Origin: Acidiferrimicrobium sp. IK
Lineage (GTDB): Bacteria > Actinomycetota > Acidimicrobiia > Acidimicrobiales > Palsa-688
Assembly (NCBI RefSeq): GCF_025499425.1
Contig: NZ_JAIMCB010000009.1
Location: 62,001-126,000 of the forward strand
DNA length: 64,000 nucleotides
Reading direction: 5' to 3'
Shown here in pieces: positions 4,307 to 15,743 of the stretch. A program made the translations under genes and the position numbers. Under the pieces are notes generated by a model, which saw only the letters and a list, made by a program, of their open reading frames with translations, was not told the DNA's origin and made no database searches. Every line of letters starts with the position of its first letter. Position 1 is the first letter of the stretch.

Positions 4307-4638
4307 ACGCACGCAGTCACGTCAAGTTGCGCTCCTCGGCAAGCGCGGCGGTCTCTTTACCGTCCCCAACAGTTTGGCTCGAGGAGGCTCGCCTGCACCC
4401 AGGGAGCCACGACACACGCCATGCTGCTCACCCCCCGCCAGCACAGCGCAGCCCGGCAACGCGTTGACCCCGACGAGGGCAAGGACGGGGTTCGGGAAGG
4501 CGGGTGGCGTAAGCCGCACCCTTGCATTGCCAATGATCCCGGAGGGCCGGCCCGGCGCCTCCGGCGCCGGGTAGAAGCTGGCCCGGCGGCGCGGGGAGTT
4601 CGCGACAGGTGTCGGTCTGGCTGCCCGGTATGGGGTGG
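4307..4638 (+). other. Leader region of the relaxase gene, possible transfer origin
   Basis: No gene is visible here. The stretch carries a perfect 9-bp inverted repeat (4551-4571) 68 bp before the relaxase start, plus shorter direct and inverted words around 4460-4530. In MobF elements the origin of transfer normally lies next to the relaxase gene and contains hairpins beside the nick site, so this is the best place to look for oriT. The assignment rests on position and hairpin alone. Confidence 0.4.
4551..4571. repeat. Perfect hairpin ahead of the relaxase gene
   Basis: CCCGGCGCC, three loop bases TCC, then GGCGCCGGG form a 9-bp perfect stem. No T-run follows, so it is a poor intrinsic terminator. 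It is better read as a structural element of a transfer origin or of the mRNA leader. Confidence 0.5.
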
Positions 4639-7600
4639 ATGCTCACCATCGGACGGATCTTCGCCGGCCAGGGCTGGCGATACCTGTGGGACCAGGTCGC
4701 CGGCGACGCCGGCGACTACTACCTCGTCGACGTCGGCCGGGGAGAGGCACCCGGCCGGTGGGGCGGCGCCGCCGCCGAGCCTGAGCTGGGCCTGGAGGGC
4801 AGGGTCAGCGAGGAGCAGATGCGCCGTACCTTCGGCCGGCTCGCCCACCCCGCCACCGGAGCCCCGCTGGGGCGACCGCCGCGCCAGTTTCGCAGCATCG
4901 AGGAGCGCCTGAGCGCGGCCCGCGCCGTCCACGATCAGACCGAGACGGCCCGTTGGGTCGAGCGCGAACTCGCCCTGGTCGGCACCGGGACCGAGCGGGA
5001 GCGGATCGAGGCCGAAGTGGTCGCGTTCCGTTCCCGGGCCGACGAGCACTGGGCTGCCACCGAGGCGGCCATCCGCCGCGGCGGGCAACGTCAAGCCGTC
5101 GCCGGGTTCGACTTGACTTTCAGCCCACCGAAGTCCGTCAGCGTGCTGTGGGCCGCCGCCTCAGCCGAGGGACGCCAGAAGATCTGGGACGCTCACCACG
5201 AAGGGGTGGCGGCGGCGATGCGTTTCGTGGAGCGCGAAGCGGCCCTGTCCAGGACGGGGTATGACGGGGTGCGACACGTCGATACCACCGGGCTGGTCAC
5301 CGCCTCGTTCGATCATCGGATGTCGAGGGCTGGTGACGTGCATGTCCACACGCATACGGCCACGCTCAACCGGGTCCGCTGCGCCGATGGGGAATGGCGG
5401 GCCCTGGACGGCCGGGCTCTCTACCGCGTTGCGGCCGCCGCGGGGGCGATCTACGACCGGGTCCGCGAGACGGCGTTGGAACGCGACCTCGGGGTCCGTC
5501 ACCACGTAGACCCGGTCAGCGGCGCCCGCGAGATCGTCGGCGTCGACGCCGAGGTACGCCGGCTGTTCTCGACCCGGCGGGTGCAGATCGAAGGTCGCCT
5601 CGACGAACTGGTCGCCGCCTGGCGGGCCGAGCACGGCACGGACCCGTCGGAGTGGATGGTCACCCGGATGGCCGAATGGGCCCGCCTGGAGACCCGCGCC
5701 CCCAAAGGCCCGGACGAGACCACCCAAGCGGCGCTAGGACGGTGGGACGCCCAGTGCCGAACCGGGCTGGGACGATCCCTCGCCTCGGTGTGGCACGCGG
5801 CCACCAATCCCGACGGGTCAGGTCACCCCGACGATCCCGGAAGCCCGGCCGGCGGCGATGACCTGCTCGCCAGCGCGGTGCGAGCGGTCGATCAGGCCCG
5901 CTCGACCTGGACCCGCTACGACCTGGCCCGGGAACTGACCCGGCGCCTCCGGCTCGACCCGGCCCAGCCGGTCGATGCCGCCCTGGGCCAGGTCGACCAA
6001 CTCATCGCAAAGGCCCTCGCCCCCGGCAACCGGTGCGGGATCGTCTCCCTCGCCGCCCCGCCCGCCTTCGTCTCCCCGACGTCGTTGCGCCGGGCCAGCG
6101 ACGACACCTCCGTCTACACCGAGCACGGCGCCGACCGATACACCACCAACGTCGGGTTGGCAATCGAACGGCGCCTGCTCGCCACCGCCAGCGACACCAG
6201 CGGCCGACGTCTCGATGCCGACGCCGCCGCAGCCGTGGGGAGTGGTTTGGACGGTGACCAGGGGAGAGCGGTGGCCGCGGTCCTCACGTCCGGTCAGCGC
6301 CTGGATATCCTGGTCGGCCCGGCGGGGACGGGCAAGACGACCACCATGGGCGCGGTCGCCCAAGCGTGGACTAATGCGGGCGGGCAGGTGCTGGGAGTGT
6401 CGATCGCCGAGAACGCCACCCGGGTCCTCGCCGGCCACGCCGGCATCCAGGCGGTCAACGCGGCCAAGCTGATCTTCGAGTACACCAAACGCGCTCCCCA
6501 CCGGCGTGGGGAACGTTGGTGGCAGGACACCTACGCCATCCACCCCGGCGCCCTCGTGATCCTCGACGAGGCCGGCATGGCGTCACGACAGACCATCGAC
6601 GCCCTCGCCGCCATCTGCGCCCAAACCGACGCCAAGCTGCTGCTCGTCGGGGACCCCGAGCAGCTCCCCTCCCCCGACGCCGGGGGGACCTTCGAGCTCA
6701 TTGCCACCCAGACGGGCGCCGCCACCCTCGGCCAAGTCCGCCGGTTCCGCCACCCCTGGGAACGGGCGGCCAGCCTCCGACTACGCGCCGGGGACGCCAC
6801 GGTGCTCGCCGAGTACGACCGGCGGGCGCGGATCACCGGAGGCAGCGCGGCGGAAGCCGAAGACGCGGCGTTCGCCGCGGCGACGGCCGACCGGGCCCGC
6901 GGGCTCGACGTGTACCTCCTCGCCGATACCAACGACGTCGCCGCCCGCCTGGCCCGCCGAGTCCGCGACCAGCTCGTCGCCGCCGCAGCGGTGGACGACA
7001 CCCGCACCGTCACCCTGGCCGACGGGAGCCACGCAGGCGTCGGCGACCAGATCGTCACCCGCGACAACGATCGCCTCAACAGGACCGGCGACGGGCGGTT
7101 CGTCGCCAACCGAGACCTGTGGACCGTCCAAGCCATCGCCGACAGCGGCGGGCTACGCGTTACCCGGGTCGACACCGACCAGACCGTCGACCTCGACGGA
7201 GCGTACGTGGCCGACCGGGTCCAACTGGCCTACGCGTCGACGATCCATGCCGCCCAGGGCGGCACCCGCGACGTCGCCCACACCGTGCTCACGCCCCGCT
7301 CCACCCGGACTAGCGCCTATGTCGGCCTCACCCGCGGCCGCGACGCGAACCACGCCTACATCGTCTGCACCCGACCCGAAGGCGCCGACACCGACGGCCC
7401 GGCCAACGACCCTCTCGCCGTGCTCACCGACATCCTGGAACGAACCGACCCCCCTGAAGGTACCGCCGCTCTCACCACCCAGACCGACGAAGCCACCCGA
7501 GCCGTCAGCCTGGGCACCCTGTACCCGATCTGGCAGGACCTCCTCGCCCACCATGGCGCTCGGCACGCCGAGACCGCCCTATATGCGATTGGCGGTGCCG

Positions 7601-9177
7601 ATCTCGCTACCGCCACCATCGCCTCCCCCGCCTGGCCAGCACTCGCCGCCCGGCTCCGCCGGCTCGAGGCCGCCGGCATCGACTCCGCCGCCGCCCTCGC
7701 CGGCGCGGCCGCGCAACAGCCCCTCGACGACGCCGAGGACCTCGCCGCGGTGTTGCACTGGCGGCTCCGCCACACCGAGACCACCGCCACCGACCCGGCG
7801 CTGTCGTTCGCCCAGCTGAGCCCCAAAGGCCAAGGCGACGTGCCCGAGACCGCCCGGCAGGTCGCCGCCGCCATGGACCACCGCACCACCGTCCTCGCCC
7901 GCCAAGTCGAGGCCAACCCGCCCACCTGGGTCGACGCCCTCGGCGAACACCCCTCCGACAACGCCGAACATCACCGGGGCTGGCTGGCCCGGGCCGGGGT
8001 GGTCGCCGGCTACCGCGAAGCCTTCGGTATCACCACCGTCGACGACCCCATCGGTCCAGCCCCCACCGAGGACCGCGTCGACGCCCACGCCTGGTGGACC
8101 CGCGCCGCCGCCGCGCTCACCAACAGCGAAGCCCGCGCCCTCGCCGCCCTCCCCGCCGAGCGCCTCGAAGCCATCATCGACCAAGCGCACGCCCACCTCG
8201 CCCAAGCACCCCCTCCTGTGGCCGACCAGCTGCGCCGCACAGCCATCGCCCTCCGCGACGCCCACACCCGCCAAGGGACTGCCGTCGCCCACGGTGACAC
8301 CGCTGCAGCGCGCACCGCCGCAGCCGACGCAGCCCGCCTCGCCCCGCAACTCGGCCGGCTCGAGCACGCCCAAGGCCTCCGGGACCGCTGGAGTCTCACC
8401 GCCGCCCGACTCGACGCCCAAGGCGCCGCATCGGAGGCGATACTCGCTGGCCGTCGGGCCGCACAAAAGGCCCGGCCGTACAACCAGGTCAACACCGAGA
8501 CCCTCGTCCGGCAGCTCCGCACCGCGCGGGTTCGGGTCAACCAGGCCAACGCCACCGCGGAGCGCTACGACCACCAGGCCGAGCAGACCGCCGCCGGGAT
8601 CGCCGTCCTGCTAGCCGAGATCGACCACACCGCCACCGTCGGGCCAGCACAAAGCCAAGCCCGCCAAACCGTCATCGCCGAACAACAAGCCGCCGCCCGC
8701 ATCGCCGGCATCGACGCCGCCCTCGACGCCACCCGCCTCGGCCATCACACGATCCGCGGTGACCAGCGAGCCCGGCTCACCGCCGAACTCAACCAGCTCA
8801 GACACCACCACCCCGGCCTGGGCGGCAATGACCCAGCCCTCCGGTGGGACACCCTGATCGCTGACGGCAGAACCGCCGACCTCGACACCCTCGCCCAGCT
8901 CCGATCCCGCCACGACCAGGCAGCCACCGACCTCGACTGGTACCGCAACACCGCCACCCTGCTCCGAGCCGACGCCGACGAACAATCAAACGTTGTGACG
9001 GAAATCAAGGCCGAACTCACTGCTCGTACCAGCACTCCCCAAGACCCGGCACCAACACGCCAGCCCTCACCCCAAACCGCTCCGCACCCGGCAACACGCG
9101 CCGCCGTAGAACAGGACCACGTCACCACCACGTCGCCCAAGCCGTCCCAGGACTCGCCTCGAGCCGGACCCGTTTAG
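4639..9177 (+). CDS. traA: MobF-family conjugative relaxase with RecD/TraI-type helicase
   Basis: This very large protein (about 1512 residues) would nick the transfer origin and unwind the strand to be moved. The N-terminal TrwC-like relaxase domain begins MLTIGRIFAGQGWRY and has a paired Tyr-Tyr at residues 27-28 as likely nucleophiles. A three-histidine metal motif DVHVHTHTATLNR lies near residue 235. The helicase part has Walker A GPAGTGKTTT near 560, Walker B VILDEAGMAS near 639 and the C-terminal motifs STIHAAQGGTRD and YVGLTRGRDANHAY. The last 500 residues are Ala/Arg-rich, predicted helical or coiled-coil, ending in a Pro/Thr tail. I chose ATG 4639 because family members begin MLTI; an upstream GTG at 4609 would add ten residues. 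No LPD or secretion partner genes are nearby. Confidence 0.93.
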   Translation: MLTIGRIFAGQGWRYLWDQVAGDAGDYYLVDVGRGEAPGRWGGAAAEPELGLEGRVSEEQMRRTFGRLAHPATGAPLGRPPRQFRSIEERLSAARAVHDQTETARWVERELALVGTGTERERIEAEVVAFRSRADEHWAATEAAIRRGGQRQAVAGFDLTFSPPKSVSVLWAAASAEGRQKIWDAHHEGVAAAMRFVEREAALSRTGYDGVRHVDTTGLVTASFDHRMSRAGDVHVHTHTATLNRVRCADGEWRALDGRALYRVAAAAGAIYDRVRETALERDLGVRHHVDPVSGAREIVGVDAEVRRLFSTRRVQIEGRLDELVAAWRAEHGTDPSEWMVTRMAEWARLETRAPKGPDETTQAALGRWDAQCRTGLGRSLASVWHAATNPDGSGHPDDPGSPAGGDDLLASAVRAVDQARSTWTRYDLARELTRRLRLDPAQPVDAALGQVDQLIAKALAPGNRCGIVSLAAPPAFVSPTSLRRASDDTSVYTEHGADRYTTNVGLAIERRLLATASDTSGRRLDADAAAAVGSGLDGDQGRAVAAVLTSGQRLDILVGPAGTGKTTTMGAVAQAWTNAGGQVLGVSIAENATRVLAGHAGIQAVNAAKLIFEYTKRAPHRRGERWWQDTYAIHPGALVILDEAGMASRQTIDALAAICAQTDAKLLLVGDPEQLPSPDAGGTFELIATQTGAATLGQVRRFRHPWERAASLRLRAGDATVLAEYDRRARITGGSAAEAEDAAFAAATADRARGLDVYLLADTNDVAARLARRVRDQLVAAAAVDDTRTVTLADGSHAGVGDQIVTRDNDRLNRTGDGRFVANRDLWTVQAIADSGGLRVTRVDTDQTVDLDGAYVADRVQLAYASTIHAAQGGTRDVAHTVLTPRSTRTSAYVGLTRGRDANHAYIVCTRPEGADTDGPANDPLAVLTDILERTDPPEGTAALTTQTDEATRAVSLGTLYPIWQDLLAHHGARHAETALYAIGGADLATATIASPAWPALAARLRRLEAAGIDSAAALAGAAAQQPLDDAEDLAAVLHWRLRHTETTATDPALSFAQLSPKGQGDVPETARQVAAAMDHRTTVLARQVEANPPTWVDALGEHPSDNAEHHRGWLARAGVVAGYREAFGITTVDDPIGPAPTEDRVDAHAWWTRAAAALTNSEARALAALPAERLEAIIDQAHAHLAQAPPPVADQLRRTAIALRDAHTRQGTAVAHGDTAAARTAAADAARLAPQLGRLEHAQGLRDRWSLTAARLDAQGAASEAILAGRRAAQKARPYNQVNTETLVRQLRTARVRVNQANATAERYDHQAEQTAAGIAVLLAEIDHTATVGPAQSQARQTVIAEQQAAARIAGIDAALDATRLGHHTIRGDQRARLTAELNQLRHHHPGLGGNDPALRWDTLIADGRTADLDTLAQLRSRHDQAATDLDWYRNTATLLRADADEQSNVVTEIKAELTARTSTPQDPAPTRQPSPQTAPHPATRAAVEQDHVTTTSPKPSQDSPRAGPV

Positions 9178-9323: not shown

Positions 9324-10688
9324 CTAGTCGGGCAGATGGCTCCTGGGGACGGACGGGTTGAGTGCCCGCCAGGTCAGCGACCGGCCCGAAGCCTCATGAA
9401 GTATCCCGGTCTGAGCCAGGACGACCTGGCGCCCGTTAGGGAACCGGGCGACAACCATGCTGGGCTTCGTTGCGCGTACGGCCGCAATCAGCTCGAGGTC
9501 AGCCTTCGGTTGTGGTCCGCCTGAGTTCGCCGGCGTGTCGAAGGACGGGCCGGGCAGCGTGCAACCCAGCACCAGGATGCCGTTCTCCGTCGTAATGTCG
9601 GTAACCGCTGCCGTGACGTCCGTCCCCCACGAGACAGCCACATACGCGCCGTCGACTGGCTTGGTAGCCGCCAGTTCTTCGGCCAAGTCAGCCGACACTG
9701 CTCGCTCCAGTCGGTCCACGAGTAGGCCGACGCAGTCACCCCCCGTGATCGTCTCGATGCTGGCTGCCTGAACCCCAAGATGCTCCAGCTGCCTGCACAC
9801 ATCTTCGGGGCGCGGGTTGACCACAACGAGCCTCGTCTCCGGCGTCAACCGCTCGCGGAGCATTCCGACTGTCACCATGTCGGTACGCGGGAGGCTGTAG
9901 CCGACCAAGTACACCTCGTCGGCGGACTCAACCGCCTGCGCTGCCCGCCGCCACAGTTCTCGGGTCAGCGGGTTGGCATAGAAGGCTGACTTCAACGCGT
10001 TCGGCGGAACGATGAAGCGAGATCGCCCGGGCAGCTCTCGCTCTCGCTCAGCGAGTCCCTTGGGCTCGGGCCGCTCGATTCCGGTTGTGACCCAACGATT
10101 GATCGTGCCACCCGTCGAGTCTCCCGGCACCCACCACCAGTTCAGGGAGCCATGAAGCTTCAGGAGCCGGAAGGTCTCCTCGTGCGATTCTGCCCAGCGC
10201 ATGTTCGCAGCCGGACGCATCGGCATGTGGTCGAGGGCGTCGGAGTGCTCTGCTCGGCGGTTCGCCTCCCAGTCCCAGAGACAATGCTCATCGACCGCCT
10301 GCTCGACCAAGGTGTCGTAGTTGAACGACACCACCGTCGATCGCCACGCGTGCATCACAGCAACGAACCTGAGCAATATCCCTATAGCCGGCGGGGTTGA
10401 CCACCACACCTCACGTTGCCGCTCCTCCACCACGTCGCCAATCGCCCGGGAGAGCTGAGCGAAGACCGCCCGTTGCTGGAAGTTCTCCGCTTCATCCAAG
10501 TCCGGCTGGTCCTCGGCCAAGCGTGACAACCACTCCTCGAATGTGCCCCCCACGAAAGTCATCGGCACTCGCACCGTCGTCGTAGGGAGGCGAGCAACCG
10601 CCAGCTCCCCCAACTCGTCGGTGATCGGCATACGCGACGAAAACGCCACCGAGAACCCAGCACCGAGGATGAACACTCGTTTCGTCAT
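9324..10688 (-). CDS. SIR2-like NAD-binding protein, candidate defence effector
   Basis: This 454-residue protein starts MTKRVFILGAGFSVAFSS, whose GAGFS is the NAD-binding loop of the SIR2_2 type. Further SIR2 marks follow in order: VVSFNYDTLVEQ (Asn and Asp of the active site), LLKLHGSLNWWW (catalytic His) and VYLVGYSLPRTD with VVNPRP. Such domains occur in sirtuin-fold NADases of bacterial immune systems (ThsA, DSR and related proteins), where NAD depletion stops infected cells. The last 120 residues form a beta-rich tail that I do not recognise and that may be a sensor. The frame is open far upstream and joins a cold-shock-domain remnant (10689-10919), so the true N-terminus may be longer. 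It lies downstream of the TcmP/DUF5131 pair on the same strand, in a mobile element. The NADase role is inferred from fold and context. Confidence 0.82.
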   Translation of the reverse strand: MTKRVFILGAGFSVAFSSRMPITDELGELAVARLPTTTVRVPMTFVGGTFEEWLSRLAEDQPDLDEAENFQQRAVFAQLSRAIGDVVEERQREVWWSTPPAIGILLRFVAVMHAWRSTVVSFNYDTLVEQAVDEHCLWDWEANRRAEHSDALDHMPMRPAANMRWAESHEETFRLLKLHGSLNWWWVPGDSTGGTINRWVTTGIERPEPKGLAERERELPGRSRFIVPPNALKSAFYANPLTRELWRRAAQAVESADEVYLVGYSLPRTDMVTVGMLRERLTPETRLVVVNPRPEDVCRQLEHLGVQAASIETITGGDCVGLLVDRLERAVSADLAEELAATKPVDGAYVAVSWGTDVTAAVTDITTENGILVLGCTLPGPSFDTPANSGGPQPKADLELIAAVRATKPSMVVARFPNGRQVVLAQTGILHEASGRSLTWRALNPSVPRSHLPD

Positions 10689-10919
10689 CAACCGTGACGG
10701 TACCGCCGCTCCGTCGGGTCGACCCGCACCCAGGTTGCCGGGCATCACGGACCGGAACGAGATTGCCTGACCGTCGGCCAGCTCCCGGTAGCCGGGCATC
10801 TCGACGCCGGAGAAGTTGAGCGAAGACCGTCCCCTTGACACTCGGCGGGACGAGAACTCCCCATCCTTCGTTCGCGTGCCACACCTGACGGTTCCCGCAG
10901 CCGACTGGTCGACGCTCAC
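10689..10919 (-). pseudogene. Cold-shock-domain sequence with two compensating frameshifts, in frame with SIR2
   Basis: Translated in two alternating frames, the minus strand reads as a cold-shock domain. GTVR is in the SIR2 frame, WHANEGWGVLVPP and the following residues to VFA are in the next frame, then FSGVEMPGYRELADGQAI is back in the SIR2 frame. The GWGVL, VFA(H)FS and GYR-L--GQ words match the RNA-binding cold-shock pattern. One base appears to be lost near 10886 and one gained near 10816 (an extra A in CAACTTC). A GTG at 10919 fits as start and leaves 77 residues ahead of the SIR2 methionine with no stop between. It is either a dead gene, a damaged CSD-SIR2 fusion, or a fusion with two base-calling errors. 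Confidence 0.6.
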
Positions 10920-11054
10920 GCGCCTCACGCCAAGCACGATAGGCAAAAGATCCTTGCCGTCACCGCCGAGTGTCGCTCCGGTACCTGCGACGGATCCGAA
11001 AGGTCGTTCCACCCCAGGGTCCACGCTCGGCGGTCGATGATGTCAACCTTGCGA

Positions 11055-12131
11055 TCAGAACAGGGCGACGGGAGCCAACCGCACGACCACGCCTTCGTGG
11101 CTCTTCGCGCTGGTCCGCTCCACCCGCCCCTCGTCAGCCAGCTGGCGCACGGCTGGGTCTACGTGTGTCTTCTTAAACACCGTTTGGAGGAGTGCGTGGT
11201 CCTTCAGGGCTGCCAGAGATCGCTCTCCCCCGTCCAGGAGATCCATGATCTGCCGTCGCAGGAGGGTCAGGTCGGGGTTGTTGTTCACTACCTCGAAGGA
11301 GAGTTGGTTCACGTCGCGAGGATCGCGAAATCGCTGGCCGTTCACCTTGTCGACCGACCACATGGCGTTCTTCATCTTGTCGACGCCAAGGGAGCTCGTG
11401 GTGCCGAACACGAGCAGCAGCTCGTGGCCGCCCTCGTCGACCATCTCGAAGGTGAGTGTGTGCGGGAACCCCGCGTCAGCGAGCCGGGCCAGATAGTGGC
11501 TGACGAGGAACGACTTCTTCGACTCGGTCGGCAGGTCGGCCACGGCCCGCCAATCCGTGCTCCCGAAGACGAGATCGCCGGCTGTGACGTCGTCGAGTGA
11601 CGCGAACCGAGTGAACCATTGAGTCTGGACGGTGACCAAAACCTCGCTGGACCGATTCTTCCCGACCCGCTCCACGATCGCGTATGGCGTGTCGACGCCC
11701 CAGCCGTCGAGGTTGACGAACATCGGGCCACCCCATGCCCCTGCCGCTTCGAGCACCGGCAGGAGTGACTCCTGGCAGCGGGCGTTTACGGTGGTGAGCT
11801 TGGTCCGGTGACTACTGAGCTGGCAGCGCTCGATCAGGCCCGTCAGGTGGTCGAGTCGGTCGGCGCGCTCCTCGATGAAGACCATCCGAAGCTCCGTCTC
11901 ATGACCGGACACGCCGGGTGCGGTCGCCGCTCGAAGCGCTATGACCGGCGACCCCCAGCCACCGTCGGTGTACTCACCCGGACCGGCGAACGCGTCGACG
12001 TAGGTAATGCCTGTGCTCGCCCAGCTCGACGCCATGATCGGAAACCACGCCTTGAGGTATTCGGCGAGCATGGCGTGCTTCGCCTCGGTGTGTGGGTCTC
12101 GATTCCACAGAACCTCCGAGGGCAGGGCCAT
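11055..12131 (-). CDS. tcmP: TcmP-like partner protein of the DUF5131 (three-Cys-motif) family
   Basis: A 358-residue protein starting MALPSEVLWNRDPHTEAKHAMLAEYL. The body looks like a Rossmann methyltransferase fold: a glycine-rich loop TYVDAFAGPGEYTDGG near residue 45, an acidic strand end MVFIEERADR near 85 and a motif-IV-like FVNLDGWGVDTPYAI near 135. In relatives the latter reads closer to DPxG, so catalysis is uncertain. The C-terminal 90 residues look like a winged-helix DNA-binding region. The ATG overlaps the stop of the upstream DUF5131 gene (TGATG), so the two are translationally coupled, as this protein pair typically is. Longer upstream frames only shadow the DUF5131 gene. Its biochemical function is not known to me; location beside a SIR2 gene on a mobile element suggests genome conflict. 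Confidence 0.85.
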   Translation of the reverse strand: MALPSEVLWNRDPHTEAKHAMLAEYLKAWFPIMASSWASTGITYVDAFAGPGEYTDGGWGSPVIALRAATAPGVSGHETELRMVFIEERADRLDHLTGLIERCQLSSHRTKLTTVNARCQESLLPVLEAAGAWGGPMFVNLDGWGVDTPYAIVERVGKNRSSEVLVTVQTQWFTRFASLDDVTAGDLVFGSTDWRAVADLPTESKKSFLVSHYLARLADAGFPHTLTFEMVDEGGHELLLVFGTTSSLGVDKMKNAMWSVDKVNGQRFRDPRDVNQLSFEVVNNNPDLTLLRRQIMDLLDGGERSLAALKDHALLQTVFKKTHVDPAVRQLADEGRVERTSAKSHEGVVVRLAPVALF

Positions 12132-12871
12132 CACACGGCCAAGGCAACAGGCATTTCGTCCCACGTCCTGCCGTCCAGCTCCCTCCCGCCCGACTTGGGG
12201 GTGTGACCGCCCCATTGCTTGAAGAAGAAAGCCGTCCTCGCCTCGGCGCACGCGTCCCGCAGCGCTCTCGCCCAGGTCGTCGACAACGGTCGAGCGCCGT
12301 GACCGGATTCTCCACCAGCGATCAACCAGTCGATCCCGTCGAGGTCGAGTTCGACTGGGCCGATCAGCGGCTCGGCCGATACGAACCTGACGGCGGATCC
12401 GACCGACCGGAGATGGTTGACCCTGAAGGCGTAGCTCTGTGACTCCACCGATACGCCCATCCACACGTTCGGCGGCCAGTCGAGCGAATCGGCCAAATTG
12501 GCCAGGCGTTTCGACCGCTTCGTGAGCACTTGGTAGGTATGGCGGGGAGTTGCAGCCATGACCTCGAACACCCGCCGGATGTAGTCGTCCGTGACCCGCT
12601 CGTGGAAGAGGTCGGACATCGAGTTCACGAATACGACCCGCGGGCGAGCCCACGAGTGCGGCAGCCCGAGGGTCTCGGGGTGAAGGGTGAGCCCGAATCC
12701 CGGTCCACTGGTCCGTGGGTCCCCGTCCGCCTGGTACTTCTCCTGACCCATCGCCTTCAGACGCTTCGCCAGAGTCAGGGCATAACAGTGGTCGCATCCT
12801 GGAGACGTCCGGTCGCATCCGGTCGTCGGGTTCCAGGTCAGCTCAGTCCACTCGATTGCAGACTCGGCCAT
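12131..12871 (-). CDS. DUF5131 (phage Gp37/Gp68) three-Cys-motif protein
   Basis: This 246-residue protein starts MAESAIEWTELTWNPTTGCDRT. The family signature is the cysteine cluster C-x6-C-x2-C in GCDRTSPGCDHCYALTLAKR (residues 18-28), resembling the Fe-S loop of radical SAM proteins but with unusual spacing. Other conserved words are VFVNSMSDLFHE, YQVLTKRSKR, VWMGVSVESQ and WLIAGGESGHGARP, followed by FFFKQWGG near the end. The arrangement resembles a partial TIM barrel and is common in phages and mobile elements. I chose ATG 12871 because AAGGAAGG lies at a proper distance upstream; a GTG at 12883 would overlap that ribosome site. It is the first gene of the coupled pair with tcmP. A weak promoter (CTGACG, 18 bp, TAGGGT) lies at 12912-12941. 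Confidence 0.88.
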   Translation of the reverse strand: MAESAIEWTELTWNPTTGCDRTSPGCDHCYALTLAKRLKAMGQEKYQADGDPRTSGPGFGLTLHPETLGLPHSWARPRVVFVNSMSDLFHERVTDDYIRRVFEVMAATPRHTYQVLTKRSKRLANLADSLDWPPNVWMGVSVESQSYAFRVNHLRSVGSAVRFVSAEPLIGPVELDLDGIDWLIAGGESGHGARPLSTTWARALRDACAEARTAFFFKQWGGHTPKSGGRELDGRTWDEMPVALAV

Positions 12872-13004
12872 GAGCGCGGACACCTTCCTTCAAGGGTCTC
12901 CGCCCCGGCTAACCCTATCGGGCGCTGTCATCGACCGTCAGGTCCGACCCAGCCCGACATCGTCGTCTCGCTCCGGCCAGTGCCGGTGCTGACGGTGAAG
13001 TGGA

Positions 13005-14052: not shown

Positions 14053-14316
14053 GTGACCATCATCGCCCAACCAACCGCCGCCAATCCGGCCAAGCTGCTC
14101 GATTATCAGGAGCTGAGCACTTGGCTCAACGACAGCGTCCGCCATCTCCGTCGCCTCGTCAATGAGCGGCGCATCCCCTATGTCAAGGTCGGTCACTTCG
14201 TGCGGTTCGACCCCGAACAAGTTCGCCGTTGGCTTGAGGACAATGCCAACGCGGCAATCACGATGCCGGTACCCGCTGCGGCCCTTCCTCGCAGCCGTCC
14301 ACCCGCCCGACACTGA
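14053..14316 (+). CDS. xis: Excisionase-type helix-turn-helix protein
   Basis: An 87-residue protein starting at GTG 14053 behind GGGAG. Residues 15-61 form the MerR-like winged helix used by excisionases and DNA-binding domains of the same family (LLDYQELSTWLNDSVRHLRRLVNERRIPYVKVGHFVRFDPEQVRRWLEDN is the complete domain by position). It lies directly beside the integrase gene, tail to tail with an 8-bp gap, so it most likely directs excision of the element. It is divergent from the HigBA operon. Confidence 0.88.
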   Translation: MTIIAQPTAANPAKLLDYQELSTWLNDSVRHLRRLVNERRIPYVKVGHFVRFDPEQVRRWLEDNANAAITMPVPAAALPRSRPPARH

Positions 14317-14324
14317 CCGTCGGG

Positions 14325-15743
14325 TCACGCAGCGTCGCCTGCGGTTGCCGCTTGGCCGCTCTCACGCCTGGGAGCGGCACGACGCTTCGGCCCCTTCTTG
14401 GGCCCGGCCAGCGCGGCGCTGATCCGCTTGTTGCCGAGCGCTTCGTCGCCCTCCAAGACGCCGGCGTAGGTCGAGACCAGCGTCTCGACACTGTGGCCCA
14501 TGCGCTTCGCGACCTCGCCGAGGGGGACCCCGGCTCGCAGCCAGGTTGTCGCTGCGGCGTGCCGGCAGTCGTAGACGCGCAGTTCTGGGCAGCCGCATTC
14601 CCGCTGCGCCCTGTGCAGGGTCCGGGCCCAGTTCGATCGCGTCGGAGGCGCACCGGTGCGGGTCCGGAAGAGTAAGTCGTCGCCGGAGAAACCGCTGTCG
14701 TCTATCCATGCTCGAAGCAGGCCGACCAACTCGGGTGGGATCGGCACCGTCCGGGGTCCCGTCTTCGGTTCCCCCGGCTCGTCGAAGGAGACGTCTGCCT
14801 CCGTTACGTGCAGGCGACCCCATCCTCTTTTCGGGAGCTCGAGTGCGTGAGCGCGCAGCATGACGACTTCGGACGGACGAAGTCCGGCGTAGTAAGCGAC
14901 GGCGGTCATAACCCGGTACTTGCGGCTCCCGGGCTGGTGGCTGACGATGGCATCGAGGATGCGCGCCATCGCGGGCGGGTCGGGCAAGTTGCGGACCGCT
15001 ACCGCTTTCTTGACCCGGGTTGCCTTTCGCTTGGATCGGCCTCGGGGCGCGGGCGGCCACGGATCGGCGGGAATGATCCCCACGTCCACCGCTCGCTGGA
15101 TGCAGGCTTTGGACACCTTCCGGTACCGGGCCGACGTGGACGGGGCGAGAGGTTTCCCTACGACGCTCACGCCCAGACCACCGTCCACATCTATCCCCGC
15201 GAGCATTGGCCGGGTGAGCTGTCCGAGTTGGAGGCTCCACTGCTCCAACCATCGTCCTGCTGCGTCGTCGACCCGAGGACCGTCCGGCGCCAGCGACGAC
15301 GCAAGGTGAGCGCGCAGCGTGGCCGGGGGCGGCGGTGCCATCGGAGCGACTAGGAGGGGTACCAGGCGGGCGATAGCTTCGACAGCCGAGACTCGGGTGC
15401 GCGGTGCCCACTCCGGCCACTGCTCCGCCAGCCACCGCCGAGCCCACTGATGAACCTGGATCTCGTCGGGTGCCGGCTGCCAGGACATCGGCTCGCCCGT
15501 CGCCGCATCGAACGGCTCGCCATGCTGCACGGCCACCAGCAGGGCCGTGCGGAACCGCTCGGCTTCGCCCTTGGTGCGGTAGGAGCGGGCGAAGAAGCGT
15601 CCGTTCAGCTTCCAGCGGACGATGTGCGGCTTCTTGTGGCGGTCGCCGGAGCGGTGCTGGATGGACCACACGGCGACATCTGCCAGGGGTCGCCCGCTAG
15701 GTACCACGCTTCGCGGGAGGGACGCGGGAGGAACTGCACTCAT
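14325..15743 (-). CDS. int: Tyrosine site-specific integrase
   Basis: A 472-residue recombinase expected to integrate the element at tRNA-Arg. The N-terminal arm-binding and SAM-like parts (residues 30-220) are followed by the catalytic domain: Arg in AGLRPSEVVML near 288, CRHAAATTWLRAG near 393, MGHS near 416 and the nucleophile tyrosine in VSTYAGVLEGDEA near 425. All catalytic residues are present. It starts at ATG 15743; TATCAT lies five bases ahead (15749-15754), suggesting a leaderless transcript. The gene begins 47 bp from the displaced tRNA half (15790-15838), the usual position for a tRNA integrase. A decayed relative is found at 18157-18511. Confidence 0.95.
   Translation of the reverse strand: MSAVPPASLPRSVVPSGRPLADVAVWSIQHRSGDRHKKPHIVRWKLNGRFFARSYRTKGEAERFRTALLVAVQHGEPFDAATGEPMSWQPAPDEIQVHQWARRWLAEQWPEWAPRTRVSAVEAIARLVPLLVAPMAPPPPATLRAHLASSLAPDGPRVDDAAGRWLEQWSLQLGQLTRPMLAGIDVDGGLGVSVVGKPLAPSTSARYRKVSKACIQRAVDVGIIPADPWPPAPRGRSKRKATRVKKAVAVRNLPDPPAMARILDAIVSHQPGSRKYRVMTAVAYYAGLRPSEVVMLRAHALELPKRGWGRLHVTEADVSFDEPGEPKTGPRTVPIPPELVGLLRAWIDDSGFSGDDLLFRTRTGAPPTRSNWARTLHRAQRECGCPELRVYDCRHAAATTWLRAGVPLGEVAKRMGHSVETLVSTYAGVLEGDEALGNKRISAALAGPKKGPKRRAAPRRESGQAATAGDAA

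What the first reader, a model, noticed from the sequence alone, without database searches (positions are those of the whole stretch)
10689..10919. Hidden cold-shock domain with compensating frameshifts, in frame with SIR2
A cold-shock domain can be read across the stretch only by switching frame at about 10886 and back at about 10816. The two shifts cancel, and the frame then continues without stop into the SIR2 protein. Either a CSD-SIR2 fusion was damaged twice, or two base errors hide a real fusion in which an RNA-binding domain would be the sensor of the SIR2 effector.
Basis: seen in the sequence. Interest (0 to 1): 0.62.

Follow-up and report, generated by a model that had tools for sequence, protein, structure and literature searches.

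The report
Decayed cold-shock gene beside SIR2
A real but frame-broken cold-shock (RNA-binding) gene relic sits directly upstream of an intact SIR2 anti-phage-type enzyme gene; it is most likely a decaying neighbour gene rather than the hidden sensor half of a fusion protein, so it is mostly ordinary.

Summary
A divergent actinobacterial cold-shock domain (CSD) is encoded at about 10895-10728 (-). It reads as one CSD only with a one-base loss near 10881-10886 and a one-base gain near 10817-10820. A frameshift-aware alignment scores 87, against 17 +/- 2.5 (maximum 27) for shuffles. Two pieces in two frames hit exactly adjoining model positions (5-27 and 28-52). The frame is then open into SIR2.

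Base errors are unlikely: 100 ABC domains of the same genome are unbroken. Open reading into SIR2 proves little, since 42 codons stay open by chance about half the time here. Twelve SIR2 relatives all start 2-16 residues before VFILGAGFS, as the ATG at 10688 does, and none has an N-terminal domain. No CSD lies in any of 42 related SIR2 loci. A TGA in the third frame overlaps the SIR2 ATG (TGATG), the same junction that joins DUF5131 to TcmP upstream. Codon usage of the last 50 bases weakly favours that frame.

Best reading: a decayed separate CSD gene, probably once translationally coupled to an intact SIR2 NADase gene beside a DUF5131-TcmP pair on a mobile element. A former fusion is not excluded.

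The parts
10689..10919 (-). Remnant of a divergent actinobacterial cold-shock domain gene; GTG at 10919 is the most likely old start. Matched core 10728-10895.
   Evidence: Frameshift-aware profile score 87 vs null maximum 27, traceback, HMM pieces, tblastn relatives
10879..10889 (-). First frame change (one base fewer than intact relatives), just after GTVR of strand beta-1
   Evidence: Traceback, step of 2 bases to the codon starting at 10881
10814..10822 (-). Second frame change (one base more than intact relatives), inside the RNP2-type motif
   Evidence: Traceback, step of 4 bases to the codon starting at 10817
10691..10747 (-). Possible third frame change: the tail matches CSD strand 5 in no frame; codon usage of 10740-10691 weakly favours the frame that ends in TGA at 10690
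   Evidence: suggestive only
10686..10690 (-). TGATG: a TGA stop overlapping the ATG start of SIR2; same junction type as DUF5131/TcmP at 12129-12133
9324..10688 (-). Intact SIR2 family protein, 454 aa, with invariant GAGFS, N123-Y-D and K-L-H179-G-S
   Evidence: Pfam SIR2_2, PADLOC SIR2, alignment, fold match to SIR2-HerA and DSR2 SIR2
9324..11024 (-). The continuous 566-aa open frame as it stands: scrambled CSD region plus SIR2
   Evidence: ORF list
11055..12131 (-). TcmP (three-Cys-motif partner, PDC-M30A candidate defence protein), 358 aa
   Evidence: NCBIfam TIGR04474, PADLOC PDC-M30A, start
12131..12883 (-). DUF5131 protein (PDC-M30B / M41B candidate defence protein)
   Evidence: Pfam PF07505, 2.1e-97, PADLOC

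Best explanation
A stand-alone gene for a divergent, mobile-element-type cold-shock domain lay directly upstream of, and probably translationally coupled to, a SIR2 gene in a defence-type cluster (DUF5131, TcmP, CSD, SIR2) between an integrase and a TrwC relaxase. The CSD gene has decayed in the genome itself: it lost one base near 10881-10886 and gained one near 10817-10820, and it probably suffered a third change near its end that removed the link to its own stop, whose TGA still overlaps the SIR2 start codon (TGATG). The out-of-frame stretch covers both nucleic-acid-binding motifs, so the CSD is dead as read. The SIR2 gene is intact and starts at the usual place, and by its fold and catalytic residues it most likely acts as a NAD-consuming abortive-infection effector. 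Shown: the CSD homology, the two shifts, the intact SIR2, the TGATG, and no CSD at related SIR2 loci. Inferred: separate cistron rather than fusion, the third shift, loss of CSD function, and NADase activity.
For: CSD significance and shift positions. Assembly quality: 100 ABC domains (about 44 kb) unbroken in the same genome. By my arithmetic the upper limit of the indel rate is about 7e-5 per base, so two errors within 190 bases have a probability near 1e-4. SIR2 relatives: 42 loci without a CSD within 5 kb where the contig allows, with detection controls positive; the closest relative, at about 50% identity (51%), has a PIN-type protein and an HTH-like protein upstream instead (by inspection). 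SIR2 start conserved at 10688 and no N-terminal fusion in 12 relatives. TGATG at 10690-10686 mirrors the DUF5131-TcmP junction. Codon usage of 10740-10691 favours the third frame over the SIR2 frame by 0.23 per codon; true coding windows are at or below -0.2 in 2.5% of cases. Stop-free run has about 50% chance. Related CSDs on Rhodococcus plasmids are small separate genes set 3 bases before, or overlapping by 4 bases, the next gene, and several are themselves frameshifted.
Against: The third frame change is not shown: no frame of the tail matches CSD strand 5 above chance, and with only two changes the CSD is in frame with SIR2. The SIR2 ATG has no clear Shine-Dalgarno by inspection, which suits either coupling or fusion. 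No intact copy of this locus was found, so the ancestral state is not observed. No reads could be examined.
Confidence: 0.66

Rival explanations
1. A true CSD-SIR2 fusion gene was damaged by two compensating indels. The second change was kept because it restored translation of the SIR2 part, so today a SIR2 with a scrambled N-terminal extension is made.
For: With two changes only, all CSD pieces and SIR2 share one frame. GC by codon position over 10816-10689 fits the SIR2 frame as a whole. A CSD of this subfamily is fused to a longer protein in Rhodococcus (L085 4554-5513), and CSDs are fused N-terminally to CoCoNuT defence GTPases (PMC11090510).
Against: No fusion in 42 SIR2 relatives; the SIR2 start is exactly where relatives start, leaving almost no linker; an open frame is expected by chance about half the time; codon usage of the last 50 bases points to another frame; TGATG at the junction.
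Confidence: 0.24
2. Two assembly or base errors hide an intact CSD that is fused to, or coupled with, SIR2.
For: The two changes cancel, and the CSD is otherwise well preserved with no stop codons in the frames used.
Against: No broken frame among 100 ABC domains of the same assembly; the window holds long intact ORFs of 1522, 472 and 454 aa; neither site is a long homopolymer.
Confidence: 0.06
3. Programmed ribosomal frameshifting (-1 and then +1 about 65 bases later) yields a working CSD-SIR2 protein.
For: Only that the sum of the shifts is zero.
Against: By inspection, no slippery heptamer at the first site and no shift-prone codon at the second; two opposite programmed shifts in one small domain would be without precedent to my knowledge.
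Confidence: 0.01
4. The CSD resemblance is a chance match in GC-rich DNA.
For: Pfam alone gives 17.9 bits, below its cut-off.
Against: Far outside the shuffles, with adjoining model positions in two frames.
Confidence: 0.01

Closest known systems
Divergent actinobacterial cold-shock proteins (PF00313 relatives of the WH-x-E-x-GWGV type; Rhodococcus plasmids, Streptomyces)
   Same: Motifs GTVR-W-EGWGV and GYRxL-GQ; small gene next to unrelated downstream genes on mobile elements; frameshifted copies also occur
   Different: Broken here in both nucleic-acid-binding motifs; upstream of SIR2, seen nowhere else in the loci examined
SIR2_2 / bacterial antiphage SIR2 effectors (SIR2 of SIR2-HerA, DSR2, KomC)
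   Same: GAGFS, NYD and KLHGS motifs; fold match to SIR2-HerA (8uae, E 3.6e-8) and DSR2 (8wyb, 2.1e-5)
   Different: No HerA partner beside it and no DSR2-type C-terminal region; own low-confidence C-terminal part
DUF5131-TcmP pair (PADLOC PDC-M30)
   Same: Both genes present, coupled by TGATG
   Different: SIR2 and CSD are not found beside the pair in nine other loci looked at
CoCoNuT type IV restriction systems (PMC11090510)
   Same: Precedent for a CSD at the N-terminus of a defence protein
   Different: There the CSD is fused to McrB/McrC-type proteins; SIR2 is not mentioned in that paper

Membership tests
Cold-shock domain (PF00313 superfamily) | Sequence similarity to CSD over most of the domain | tested here: met
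   Frameshift-aware score 87 vs null maximum 27; HMM positions 5-52
Cold-shock domain (PF00313 superfamily) | Pfam gathering cut-off | tested here: not met
   17.9 bits vs 27; an intact annotated relative also fails with 17.7
Cold-shock domain (PF00313 superfamily) | One uninterrupted frame with RNP1 and RNP2 and five strands | tested here: not met
   RNP1/RNP2 stretch out of frame; fifth strand not recognisable in any frame
CSD-SIR2 fusion | Both domains in one frame in at least one relative | tested here: not met
   0 of 42 SIR2 loci have a CSD
SIR2_2 antiphage-type NADase | Rossmann GAG motif and catalytic Asn and His | tested here: met
   G9-A-G-F-S, N123, H179 invariant in 12 sequences; SIR2_2 over its cut-off
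SIR2_2 antiphage-type NADase | NAD hydrolysis on infection | not testable with these tools
   Needs an assay
PDC-M30 (TcmP + DUF5131) | Adjacent TcmP-like and DUF5131 genes | tested here: met
   TIGR04474 161 bits over a cut-off of 53; PF07505 325.8 bits

The most novel reading that the evidence does not exclude
An RNA-binding cold-shock domain once served, fused or as a coupled partner, as sensor or silencer of a SIR2 NADase. This lineage then lost the CSD by compensating frameshifts that spare SIR2 translation, a decoupling of sensor and effector caught in the act.
Probability: 0.12. Interest if true: 0.6.

Novelty: new member of a known kind. Interest (0 to 1): 0.27.

Why it matters
If the CSD had been a functional partner, it would be a new way of tying an RNA-binding domain to a NAD-depleting immune effector. 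As it stands, the case shows how a real domain can hide from annotation behind two small frame changes, and that an open frame in 65-70% GC DNA is no proof of fusion.

Tried and rejected
Searches of plasmids (DNA and protein) and viral contigs for the SIR2 or the CSD-SIR2 pair: no close relative; phage records for the CSD: none. DNA search of 32 genomes of the same family: only the DUF5131 gene is shared at length. Three-frame test of the CSD tail against strand 5: inconclusive in all frames; an apparent resemblance of the third-frame tail (ATWVRV) to L118 (RATWVRPL) did not exceed chance. Codon-usage Viterbi: too weak to place the shifts. Literature for CSD with SIR2 in phage defence: nothing. 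A whole-genome frameshift census was not possible, so ABC domains were used instead. Recurrent compensation: one Rhodococcus CSD copy has the same loss-then-gain pattern, but a relative shares only the gain, so I treat it as ordinary decay.

Full report
Observation. The minus strand between 10919 and 10689 reads GTVR in one frame, VWHANEGWGVLVPPSVKGTVFA in the next, and NFSGVEMPGYRELADGQAISF back in the first. A profile of 12 CSDs aligned with frameshifts allowed scores 87.3; without shifts 52.6; 150 codon shuffles give 17.4 +/- 2.5 with a maximum of 27.4. The traceback puts the shifts at codons starting 10881 (one base too few) and 10817 (one base too many), independent of the penalties tried. 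A plain HMM finds the two long pieces separately at adjoining positions 5-27 and 28-52. tblastn finds intact relatives. The finding is therefore real and not chance. The closest subfamily is the divergent actinobacterial CSD with the W-x-E-x-GWGV motif, common on Rhodococcus plasmids and present in other actinobacteria.

Errors or mutations. In the same 5.08 Mb, 47-contig assembly, 100 of 103 ABC_tran matches span nearly the whole domain in one frame with no stop. That is about 44 kb of coding sequence without an indel. Two errors within about 190 bases would then have a probability near 1e-4 (my arithmetic). The sites are not long homopolymers. The changes are most likely in the genome.

Fusion or neighbour. 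With two changes only, the CSD pieces lie in the SIR2 frame, and that frame is open. Stops are so rare here (1.6% per codon) that 42 codons stay open about half the time, so this carries no weight. Against fusion: the 42 SIR2 relatives found in genome contigs carry no CSD in any frame, while the same search finds CSDs in every control locus. The nearest relative, at about 50% identity, has a PIN-type protein and an HTH-like protein upstream. Twelve aligned SIR2 proteins start 2-16 residues before VFILGAGFS, as the ATG at 10688 does. The ATG at 10688 overlaps a TGA of the third frame as TGATG, exactly the junction type that joins DUF5131 to TcmP in the same cluster. Codon usage of 10740-10691 prefers that third frame by 0.23 per codon, a value that true coding windows reach in about 2.5% of cases. 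The tail itself resembles CSD strand 5 in no frame. I therefore favour a separate, coupled CSD gene with a third change near its end, and keep former fusion as the main rival.

Mechanism. The SIR2 protein keeps G9-A-G-F-S, N123-Y-D and K-L-H179-G-S, invariant in 12 relatives. An AlphaFold model (mean pLDDT 66; the C-terminal 75 residues unreliable) matches the SIR2 of SIR2-HerA best (E 3.6e-8), then DSR2. From established knowledge of those systems, it most likely depletes NAD on infection. The trigger is unknown. The CSD as read has its nucleic-acid-binding stretch out of frame and is very probably non-functional.

Surroundings. The cluster lies between a TrwC-type relaxase (4609-9177) and an excisionase/integrase pair (14053-15743) and holds DUF5131 and TcmP (candidate defence pair PDC-M30). 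In nine other TcmP or DUF5131 loci neither SIR2 nor a CSD is adjacent, so neither belongs to that pair as a rule.

Related decay. On Rhodococcus plasmids the same CSD subfamily is multi-copy (60 places in 30 records) and often broken. One copy in L178 shows a one-base loss at nearly the same alignment column and a one-base gain later; its relative in L185 has only the gain. This supports ordinary decay of mobile CSD genes. In three Rhodococcus loci the CSD gene is followed within 3 bases, or overlapped by 4 bases, by a 256-266 aa protein of unknown family, which shows that close coupling of this CSD to a following gene occurs elsewhere.

Verdict. Observation confirmed; interpretation partly supported; modest interest. 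The residual novel case is an RNA-binding regulator of a SIR2 effector lost in this lineage.

Noticed in passing
L178 3559-3800 (-) and L185 12302-12530 (+): Rhodococcus plasmid copies of the same CSD subfamily are frameshifted; one carries a loss-then-gain pair like the window, and its relative only the gain.
   Followed up: partly
L178 2486-3484, L179 2486-4062, L181 2486-4147: Divergent CSD gene set 3 bases before, or overlapping by 4 bases, a 256-266 aa protein with no Pfam family; in L179 and L181 this is followed by a DUF2716 gene. A possible CSD-led gene pair.
   Followed up: partly
L085 4554-5513: A CSD of this subfamily fused to about 240 aa of unknown function, next to a second stand-alone CSD gene.
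   Followed up: no
window 11055-12883: Intact DUF5131-TcmP pair (PDC-M30 candidate defence system), genes joined by TGATG.
   Followed up: partly
L043 6645-10616 and L044 1972-3765: Two SIR2 relatives are followed by a large helicase-plus-methylase protein resembling single-chain restriction-modification enzymes (by inspection), a different partner for this SIR2 family.
   Followed up: no
L190 1459-3609: A TcmP relative (50% identity) in a frame open for over 700 aa, perhaps with an extra C-terminal domain.
   Followed up: no
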